This document shows, piece after piece, positions 31,662 to 34,020 of a stretch of 48,265 nt of DNA. Made by a program: the position numbers and the translations under genes. Source of the DNA: Acidimicrobiaceae bacterium (GTDB lineage: Bacteria; Actinomycetota; Acidimicrobiia; Acidimicrobiales; RAAP-2); assembly GCA_003160115.1 (NCBI GenBank), contig PLQL01000024.1, forward strand, positions 1-48,265, written 5' to 3'. How positions within the stretch are numbered: position 1 is the stretch's first letter; every line of letters begins with the position of its first letter. Under the pieces are notes generated by a model. It ran no database searches and was not told where the DNA came from. It was given only the letters and a program-made list of their open reading frames with translations.

Positions 31662-31680
31662 AAATTTTTTGAAAAAATTT
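31662..31680. repeat. Perfect AT palindrome AAATTTTTT-G-AAAAAATTT at the 5' end of the coupling-protein ORF
   Basis: Direct reading; 9-bp arms around a single G. Confidence 0.85.
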
Positions 31681-32988
31681 GCAACCGTTGCGTGCGTGAT
31701 CGACGATGGCATCTACTTAGGTCAAACACGACACGGTGACGCGACGAGTGGATCGCAGCGCTCCACGTTGGTGCTCGGACCAAGTCGAAGTGGAAAGACG
31801 ACATCACTCATCATTCCAAATCTCCTGATCACAAAGCGATCTTGCGTCATCACGTCAACGAAGAACGACGTCGTGAATGCAATGGCAAACGCACGACGCG
31901 ACGCAGCGATCCTTCTGTTCGATCCGTCGGGAACGGTCTATACACCAAATGGAGTGCAACGTGTTGGATACTCACCAATTCGTCAATCAAAAAGTTGGGA
32001 CGGAGCAGTTTTGGCGTCGCGCACGCTCATCGACGTCTCACGACGAGGTCGCGGCGATCGCAGCGACGACCACTGGACCGAGCGCGCTGGTGCACTCGTG
32101 GCACCGTTGCTGCACGCCGCGGCACTCGGCGACGAGTCGCTCGGTACTCTCGCGTCACGCGTCGACCACCGACACGCCGACGACGCACTTCACGCGTTGC
32201 ACGAACGCTACGGCGATCATCACCCTTCGGTCTCGCTGCTGAGCGGCGTTCTCGCCACCGAAGAACGCGAACGATCGGGCATCTGGTCCACGACCTCGGG
32301 GTTATTCGCCGGCGTGCGCACCGAGGCGGCACGCGCGTCTGCGCGCGAGGCACCCCTCGACGTCGACGAGTTCCTCGCCGGACCCCATCAACTGCACATC
32401 GTGGCGCCCAGTCGATACCAGGCGGTGACGACCCCGCTCGTGGTGGGCCTGATTGACGAGTTGGTGCACGCCACGTACGACCGCCACGAAAAGGGTGCCC
32501 GGCTCCTACTCGCCCTGGACGAACTCGCCAACGTGGCGCCGCTACCGCGACTCGCGAGCATCGTCTCTGAAGGCGGGGGTCAGGGCGTACTCACCCTCGC
32601 CTGTCTCCAAGATCTCAGTCAGGCGCGCAGCCGTTGGGGAGCATCGGGCGAGGGCTTTCTCTCGCTCTTTCCCACGACCGTCGTCCTACCGGGTATCGGG
32701 GACCGGCCCACGCTGGAACTACTTCAGCATCTAGCGGGCCGCTCGCTCGTGGCGAGCCCGAGCGTCCAGCTGAGTGCCCGGGGAAGGCGAACGGGCCAGA
32801 GTACGGCCTGGGTCGAACGCGACCGCGCGACCCTCGCGAGCATCGCCCAGGGACGCCCCGGCTACGCCCTCGGCCTCGACGCCACCAAACGAATGAGCTG
32901 GATCGGCCTCACCCCGTCCTACCTCGACGAGCGATTCACTCGCTACCTCGAGCGCTCGTACCCGACCGATCGCTCCCTCGAACGCTGA
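31669..32988 (+). CDS. VirD4/TraD-type coupling ATPase (TraM-recognition/type IV secretion coupling family), no evident N-terminal TM domain
   Basis: Walker A LVLGPSRSGKTTSLIIPNLL, ILLFDPSG, Walker B LLLALDELANVAPLPRLASIVSEGGGQGVLTLACLQDLSQARSRWG, FPTTVVLPGIGDRPTLELLQHLAGRS. Start uncertain (TTG 31669 or GTG 31696). Confidence 0.85.
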   Translation: MKKFATVACVIDDGIYLGQTRHGDATSGSQRSTLVLGPSRSGKTTSLIIPNLLITKRSCVITSTKNDVVNAMANARRDAAILLFDPSGTVYTPNGVQRVGYSPIRQSKSWDGAVLASRTLIDVSRRGRGDRSDDHWTERAGALVAPLLHAAALGDESLGTLASRVDHRHADDALHALHERYGDHHPSVSLLSGVLATEERERSGIWSTTSGLFAGVRTEAARASAREAPLDVDEFLAGPHQLHIVAPSRYQAVTTPLVVGLIDELVHATYDRHEKGARLLLALDELANVAPLPRLASIVSEGGGQGVLTLACLQDLSQARSRWGASGEGFLSLFPTTVVLPGIGDRPTLELLQHLAGRSLVASPSVQLSARGRRTGQSTAWVERDRATLASIAQGRPGYALGLDATKRMSWIGLTPSYLDERFTRYLERSYPTDRSLER

Positions 32989-34020
32989 GCCCACCGCTCG
33001 AGATCCTCGCTCGCGAGGGGCCGCGGACCGCGTTCACGCACGAGCCGGATCATCCGGGCCTCGCTGAGCCCGATCGAAGCCTCGCGAACGCCCCGCGAGT
33101 CGCGAAGCGCCGGGTACAACGTGTCGATCGAACGAGTGATCTCCTGGGCCCCCTCGCCATAGGTCGCCGCTTCGGCCCAGGCGCCCACCAGTTGGCGTCG
33201 GGTGATCTCGCGCGAACCCTCGAGAGCCGACCCGAAGACGTGTTCGTCAACACTCGCCCTATCCCTCGTCGGGGGTGGCACCTCGCCGGTGACCTCGAAG
33301 CGGTCCACGTCGTCACGCCAGCGCGCGACGATCTCCTCGCGTCGCCAATGCCGCTTTTCGCCTCGATCGTCGAAGTGACCTCCCCACAGGGCTCGATAGC
33401 CCTCATCCACACCAATGACGTGTTCGACGCCGTGAAACGAACGCCAGGTCACCCAGGGTGTCTCCTGCGCGACGAGCTGGCGCAGGGATGACCGATAGAG
33501 GGCGTCCGCGGCGCGCGCGTGGACGTAGAGCGATCGCGCGTCGAGCACGGTGGTCGCGTGTTCCGGGCGAGCTCCTACGAGCACGTGATCGTGCACGTGG
33601 GGCTCACCGTGTCGATTGACTCCGTGGGTGAAACTCACCACGCTCTCCCAACGACCTGGTTCGTCGCGGTCCGCCCCCGCCCTTCGGTCGCGCACCACCA
33701 GGGCTCGTTGTTCGAGGTAGTCCATCGAAGAGGCGACCGAGGAGCGATGCGCCTCCAAGAGCGCGCCCGCACTCGGTGGATCGAGCGCGACCAGGATCGA
33801 GACGGCGCGCGGCGCCGCAAAGATGAGGTCATAACCAAGTACGGAAGCGCGGTTGGTGTGTACCAGTACTTCGGCCACGTCACGCTCACGACGGGTGTCA
33901 CCGTCACCGCGTAACCACCAACCGGGACCGTCGACCATGCCTTCGAGTTCAAGGGCGTGATCGTCGGTGAAGTAGCTCACGTCACTGGACCGTCGAGAGA
34001 ATATTCGCAGCACGCCCACC
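32943..34020 (-). CDS. MobF/TrwC-like relaxase (HUH endonuclease), no helicase domain
   Basis: Reading from GTG 34020: VGVLRIFSRRSSDVSYFTDDHALELEGMVDGPGWWLRGDGD...GYDLIFAAPRAVSILVAL...SFTHGVNRHGEPHVHDHVLVGARP (HxHxH metal triad). Only about 359 aa, ending without helicase motifs. Confidence 0.85.

What the first reader, a model, noticed from the sequence alone, without database searches (positions are those of the whole stretch)
31669..34020. Orphan coupling ATPase / relaxase pair in an otherwise housekeeping region
A VirD4/TraD-type ATPase (+) and a MobF/TrwC-like HUH relaxase (-) converge with a 46-nt 3' overlap (32943-32988). Flanking genes (rnhB, cofC, PafBC-like, moaC, tldDE, dxs) look vertically inherited. 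No T4SS channel genes, integrase, replication protein or partition genes are in the window. Either this is the remnant of an integrated mobilisable element, or a domesticated ssDNA-processing/transport module fixed in the chromosome. Apparently intact catalytic motifs in both proteins argue against simple decay.
Basis: partly seen in the sequence, partly recalled or inferred. Interest (0 to 1): 0.85.

Follow-up and report, generated by a model that had tools for sequence, protein, structure and literature searches.

The report
Domesticated conjugation genes in Acidimicrobiales
A DNA-nicking relaxase and a DNA-pump ATPase that normally belong to plasmids have become permanent, vertically inherited chromosomal genes in many families of a bacterial order, alongside a second fixed set of DNA-transfer genes and a DNA-damage regulator, in genomes that lack the usual DNA-uptake channel ComEC.

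Summary
The pair is real. A soluble VirD4/TrwB-like ATPase (31696-32988 +) and a helicase-less MobF/TrwC-type HUH relaxase (32943-34013 -) converge with a 46-nt overlap. It is neither remnant nor orphan. Both genes occur in all 61 genomes of the genus examined, syntenic wherever flanks could be read, under purifying selection and concordant with flanking genes. ATPase orthologues occur in 66/219 genomes sampled across the order (20 families, including Acidimicrobium ferrooxidans); all 63 tested also have a MobF relaxase. The relaxase usually sits beside PafBC, the ssDNA-sensing DNA-damage regulator. In one family it sits beside a second conserved locus (VirB6/SCO6881-, SCO6880-, VirB4-, VirD4-like genes), which has its own fixed site; a VirB4 match accompanies 65/66. 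Fixed relaxases keep the HUH histidines but have lost the helicase or its Walker A; mobile relaxases in the same genomes keep it and form a separate clade. No ATPase-positive genome has ComEC (0/66, against 128/153 others). Best reading: an ancient domesticated conjugation machine for the cell's own DNA, linked to DNA damage, resembling archaeal Ced/Ted but retaining a relaxase. Domestication is well supported; DNA transfer is inferred. A new covarying structured RNA lies next to the ATPase gene.

The parts
31696..32988 (+). T4CP-A: soluble VirD4/TrwB-like ATPase, 430 aa (GTG start; the frame is open from TTG 31669)
   Evidence: PF02534/PF12696/PF10412; no TM by hydropathy; predicted fold matches Cagbeta (E 1e-17, TMq 0.70-0.75) and TrwB (E about 1e-14, TMq about 0.66); TrwB by sequence profile
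31777..31800 (+). Walker A GPSRSGKT of the ATPase (residues 28-35)
   Evidence: G28, P29, R31-T35 invariant in 33 homologues (A4); G..P and GKT invariant across families (A1)
32506..32523 (+). Walker B LLALDE of the ATPase (residues 271-276)
   Evidence: D275/E276 invariant
32943..34013 (-). Relaxase: MobF/TrwC-type HUH domain, 356 aa, no helicase (GTG start at 34013)
   Evidence: PF08751; TraI/TrwC by profile; predicted structure pLDDT 91.6, best PDB matches F TraI and TrwC relaxase domains
33972..33974 (-). Catalytic tyrosine Tyr14 (TrwC Tyr18 position)
   Evidence: invariant in A2 and A3
33585..33626 (-). Metal-binding histidines His130, His141, His143 within the PHxHxH motif
   Evidence: invariant; motif present in all fixed relaxases scanned
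32943..32988 (.). 46-nt overlap of the two 3' ends
   Evidence: ORF coordinates
34043..35989 (-). PafBC-like regulator (two fused WYL halves), 29 bp upstream of the relaxase on the same strand, so probably one operon
   Evidence: WYL PF13280; PafBC 6sj9 E 5e-17; relaxase next to PafB-PafC in about 15 families
31403..31690 (-). Conserved structured RNA pointing away from the ATPase gene (next to the system, not clearly part of it)
   Evidence: 39-sequence alignment, 28 of 57 pairs with compensatory change; controls; no Rfam match
30502..31107 (+). cofC, conserved left flank of locus A in several families
   Evidence: PF01983; synteny
36044..36556 (-). moaC, right flank in the genus
   Evidence: PF01967; synteny

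Best explanation
The two genes are the DNA-processing part of an ancient domesticated conjugation machine fixed in the chromosomes of many Acidimicrobiales. Shown by computation: the relaxase with intact HUH active site, the soluble VirD4-like ATPase, and a second fixed locus (VirB6/SCO6881-like membrane protein, SCO6880-like protein, VirB4-like ATPase, VirD4-like ATPase) are co-inherited, and the relaxase is normally linked to PafBC. Inferred mechanism: ssDNA produced by damage activates PafBC, which raises its own operon including the relaxase; the relaxase nicks chromosomal DNA and stays bound to the 5' end; the soluble hexameric ATPase (in place of the lost helicase) feeds the strand to the VirD4/VirB4/VirB6-like membrane assembly; the strand passes to a neighbouring kin cell for recombinational repair or gene exchange, a route taking the place of ComEC-based transformation. 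Likelihoods: domesticated and vertically inherited about 0.95; acts on ssDNA by nicking about 0.8; moves DNA between cells about 0.5; controlled by DNA damage about 0.5.
For: Pair in 61/61 genus genomes with the same gene order in the named loci that reach the flanks. dN/dS 0.086 (ATPase) and 0.139 (relaxase) for the nearest pair; medians 0.156 and 0.30, like flanking genes. Distances concordant: ATPase-relaxase r=0.95, ATPase-WYL 0.945, ATPase-moaC 0.86. ATPase orthologue in 66/219 order genomes; MobF relaxase in 63/63 tested. cofC..ATPase..relaxase..PafBC linkage kept in other families. HUH motif in all fixed relaxases with no convincing helicase Walker A; mobile ones with the helicase region covered keep Walker A and have Gln where the fixed ones have His (PQLHxH against PHxHxH); mobile relaxases form one clade, support 99/95. 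Locus B VirB4 in 57/61 genus genomes, in 65/66 ATPase-positive genomes against 21/153 others, at a fixed site next to a two-component system in several families; relaxase beside locus B in family f16. ComEC 0/66 against 128/153. ATPase gene beside ImuA' and DnaE2 in families f39 and f46. PafBC is activated by ssDNA (PMC11804915).
Against: No transfer assay exists. Locus B lacks recognisable VirB8- and VirB1-like genes and a pilin, and in this genus both VirD4-like ATPases lack membrane anchors, so a complete channel is not shown. No oriT or nick site was found. Homologues of locus-B proteins in Streptomyces (cmdABCDEF) act in aerial growth and chromosome segregation and did not affect plasmid transfer (PMC2782261). 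ATPase presence, locus B and ComEC loss may trace to one ancestral event, so the Fisher p-values overstate independence. No PafBC-dependent promoter was tested. Many genomes are incomplete MAGs.
Confidence: 0.6

Rival explanations
1. Intracellular role only: relaxase and ATPases process or move ssDNA at damaged forks or during chromosome segregation, and locus B is a membrane DNA pump like Streptomyces cmd; no DNA passes between cells.
For: Linkage to PafBC and to ImuA'-DnaE2; soluble ATPases; the cmd mutant has segregation defects and no plasmid-transfer effect (PMC2782261).
Against: The cmd paper reports no relaxase partner; exclusion of ComEC and co-inheritance with VirB4/VirB6-like genes fit exchange between cells better.
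Confidence: 0.27
2. DNA importer in the manner of archaeal Ced/Ted: locus B takes DNA in, and the relaxase joins or circularises incoming ssDNA.
For: VirB4- plus VirB6-like core as in Ced/Ted, DNA-damage link, absence of ComEC (PMC9905601).
Against: Ced/Ted have no relaxase; a conserved nicking enzyme with a VirD4-like partner is typical of a donor.
Confidence: 0.12
3. Decaying or recently integrated mobilisable element.
For: Homologous to conjugation genes; the 3' part of the pair is somewhat richer in GC (0.66-0.68) than its flanks.
Against: Fixed synteny across genus and families, purifying selection, concordant distances, invariant catalytic residues, no flanking direct repeats.
Confidence: 0.01

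Closest known systems
Archaeal Ced/Ted domesticated conjugation systems (PMC9905601)
   Same: Conjugation ATPase (VirB4) and membrane channel (VirB6) fixed in the chromosome of whole orders; Ced is induced by UV damage.
   Different: Ced/Ted lack a relaxase; here a HUH relaxase and two VirD4-like ATPases are retained, in bacteria.
MOBF relaxases TrwC (R388) and TraI (F, pCU1, pKM101)
   Same: Relaxase fold, three histidines, first catalytic tyrosine.
   Different: No working helicase, second tyrosine pair not recognisable, His in place of Gln before the HxH, chromosomal PafBC context.
TrwB/VirD4 coupling proteins and Cagbeta
   Same: RecA-like motor with Walker A/B and an overall fold match.
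   Different: No N-terminal membrane anchor; lies outside any element.
Streptomyces cmdABCDEF and the SCO6871-6884 cluster (PMC2782261)
   Same: Chromosomal VirB4-like, SCO6880-like and SCO6881-like proteins, as in locus B.
   Different: No relaxase or PafBC association reported there; known phenotype is aerial growth and chromosome segregation.
Thermus transjugation (TdtA, PMC5365140)
   Same: Chromosomal DNA donated by an ATPase-driven system.
   Different: Element-borne (ICETh1) and needs recipient competence; the genomes here lack ComEC.

Membership tests
Integrative or mobilisable element (ICE/IME) | Variable presence or position between close relatives; flanking direct repeats | tested here: not met
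   Present in 61/61 genus genomes; same neighbours; no direct repeats bracket the pair
Integrative or mobilisable element (ICE/IME) | Integrase or replication genes nearby | tested here: not met
   Neighbours from oppD to tldE are housekeeping genes; the whole genome was not scanned for integrases
MOBF relaxase | HUH histidine triad, acidic residue and catalytic tyrosine | tested here: met
   Y14, H130, H141, H143 invariant, D62 at least 90%
MOBF relaxase | Second catalytic tyrosine pair (TrwC Tyr26/27) | tested here: not met
   No conserved tyrosine in that stretch in A3
MOBF relaxase | C-terminal RecD-like helicase with Walker A | tested here: not met
   Absent in the genus; Walker A lost in the longer fixed homologues, kept in the mobile ones
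MOBF relaxase | Nicks an oriT | not testable with these tools
   Needs purified protein; no oriT identified
VirD4/TraD coupling protein | RecA-like motor with Walker A and B | tested here: met
VirD4/TraD coupling protein | N-terminal transmembrane anchor | tested here: not met
   hydropathy
Complete T4SS | VirB4 ATPase and VirB6-like channel in the genome | tested here: met
   locus B; the VirB6-like call rests on SCO6881 family 5e-05 in f16, below its curated cut-off, plus position and hydropathy
Complete T4SS | VirB8/VirB1-like and pilin genes | tested here: inconclusive
   None recognised near locus B by Pfam; genome not searched for them
Archaeal Ced/Ted system | VirB6/VirB4 pair fixed in the chromosome, no relaxase | tested here: not met
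   Fixed VirB4/VirB6-like locus is present, but so is a relaxase

The most novel reading that the evidence does not exclude
A bacterial lineage spanning at least 20 families has replaced natural transformation with a domesticated, relaxase-bearing conjugation machine under DNA-damage control, so that the chromosome rather than a mobile element owns and uses conjugation.
Probability: 0.35. Interest if true: 0.92.

Novelty: new variant of a known kind. Interest (0 to 1): 0.8.

Why it matters
Beltran et al. (PMC9905601) contrast bacteria, where conjugation systems belong to mobile elements, with archaea that domesticated them. An order-level, relaxase-bearing domesticated set in bacteria would be a counterexample. 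Its exclusion of ComEC and its tie to an ssDNA-sensing damage regulator make the old idea of DNA exchange for repair directly testable, in a cultured type strain among others. It also warns that mobility-gene surveys will count these fixed genes as mobilisable elements.

Tried and rejected
Remnant or recent ICE: rejected by synteny, dN/dS, concordance and lack of flanking repeats. VirB4 by PF03135 in the own genome: none; the VirB4-like protein was found only as neighbour of the second VirD4 hit, so a family-level negative would have misled. Rfam for the conserved intergenic region: no match. That region as an oriT: not supported; it looks like a leader RNA pointing away, and its model is found only in this genus. 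PafBC promoter motif: consensus not found in the text read, not scanned. Literature on a relaxase in Acidimicrobiia: one irrelevant hit.

Full report
What is there. The ATPase (31696-32988 +) and relaxase (32943-34013 -) are real and converge with a 46-nt overlap. Profiles and predicted structures tie the relaxase to TrwC/TraI relaxase domains and the ATPase to Cagbeta and TrwB (the ATPase model is moderate, pLDDT 79.8). The relaxase has no helicase and the ATPase no membrane segment. Upstream of the relaxase by 29 bp on the same strand lies a fused PafBC-like regulator.

Fixed, not mobile. All 61 genus genomes examined have both genes. In the named loci whose flanks could be read, oppD-rnhB-cofC-ATPase><relaxase-PafBC-moaC is kept with a few local insertions or losses, and cofC..ATPase><relaxase-PafBC is still seen in 48%-identical relatives. 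dN/dS is 0.086 (ATPase) and 0.139 (relaxase) for the closest pair, with medians like those of flanking genes; many other pairs are near saturation. Protein distances agree between ATPase and relaxase (r=0.95) and with flanking genes (0.51 to 0.945). No direct repeats bracket the pair.

Across the order. With a profile of the ATPase, 66 of 219 genomes sampled from the order hold a clear orthologue, in 20 families (the cut is about 350 bits on an unbroken contig, and three split copies were counted by hand). One is a complete genome of 2,158,157 bp, the published length of Acidimicrobium ferrooxidans. In a phylum sample, matches outside the order score no more than 338 bits. All 63 ATPase-positive genomes tested also hold a MobF relaxase, although some of these hits are mobile ones.

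Context. In about 15 families the fixed relaxase lies by PafB-PafC, mostly directly downstream on the same strand. In family f16 it lies by locus B. The ATPase gene lies by cofC and a PIG-L gene in several families, and next to ImuA', a weak Y-family-polymerase match and DnaE2 in families f39 and f46.

Domestication signature. Every fixed relaxase scanned keeps the three histidines with PHxHxH; none has a convincing helicase Walker A (two isolated pattern matches, in L219 and L229, were not followed up). Mobile-type relaxases in the same genomes have PQLHxH, keep Walker A where the region is covered, and have no PafBC beside them. A 66-row tree separates the mobile ones as one clade, 99/95; the remaining rows are the other side of that branch, and where the root lies is not known.

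Locus B. In the window's genome, contig C24 about 69.9-74.3 kb encodes VirD4-like, VirB4-like, SCO6880-like and polytopic membrane proteins; an ambiguous base leaves the membrane gene split. The VirB4-like gene is in 57/61 genus genomes. The site, next to a histidine kinase and response regulator, is kept in family f1 and in f28, f31 and f32 examples. Of 66 ATPase-positive genomes 65 have a VirB4 match, against 21 of 153 others; the query also matches VirB4 of mobile elements, so this count is an upper bound for locus B itself.

ComEC. PF03772 is found in 128 of 219 genomes and in none of the 66, the complete A. ferrooxidans genome included. Fisher p-values are tiny but ignore phylogeny; one ancestral loss could explain the pattern.

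Function. Shown: conservation, linkage, catalytic residues, co-inheritance. Inferred: nicking, ssDNA pumping, transfer between cells, damage control. PafBC activation by ssDNA is from PMC11804915; Ced/Ted domestication from PMC9905601; the cmd precedent for a chromosomal VirB4/SCO6880/SCO6881 set with a segregation phenotype from PMC2782261. The main rival is a purely intracellular DNA-processing role.

Noticed in passing
window 31403-31690 (- strand): A strongly conserved, non-coding region with a covarying secondary structure (core: 27 of 44 pairs with changes on both sides, 93.6% of cells paired, 0/500 shuffles as high), no Rfam match, model hits only within this genus; probably a leader RNA of the lysine-rich gene.
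   Followed up: yes
window 31110-31391 (- strand): Short lysine/alanine-repeat protein resembling histone H1-like HC2 (E 1.6e-05, below Pfam's cut-off).
   Followed up: partly
G000:C24 about 74.6-76.7 kb (L108:14636-16710): Histidine kinase and response regulator conserved next to locus B across several families; possible regulators of the machine.
   Followed up: partly
G049 contigs C10, C11, C19; G184: Related genomes also carry genuine mobile-type T4CP, VirB4 and MobF genes (19 MobF matches in G184), useful as controls.
   Followed up: partly
window 23000-25000: GC dips to 0.53-0.56 against about 0.62 around it.
   Followed up: no
L065: A locus of this genus carries a record title naming a Saccharibacteria bacterium, probably a mislabelled record.
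   Followed up: no
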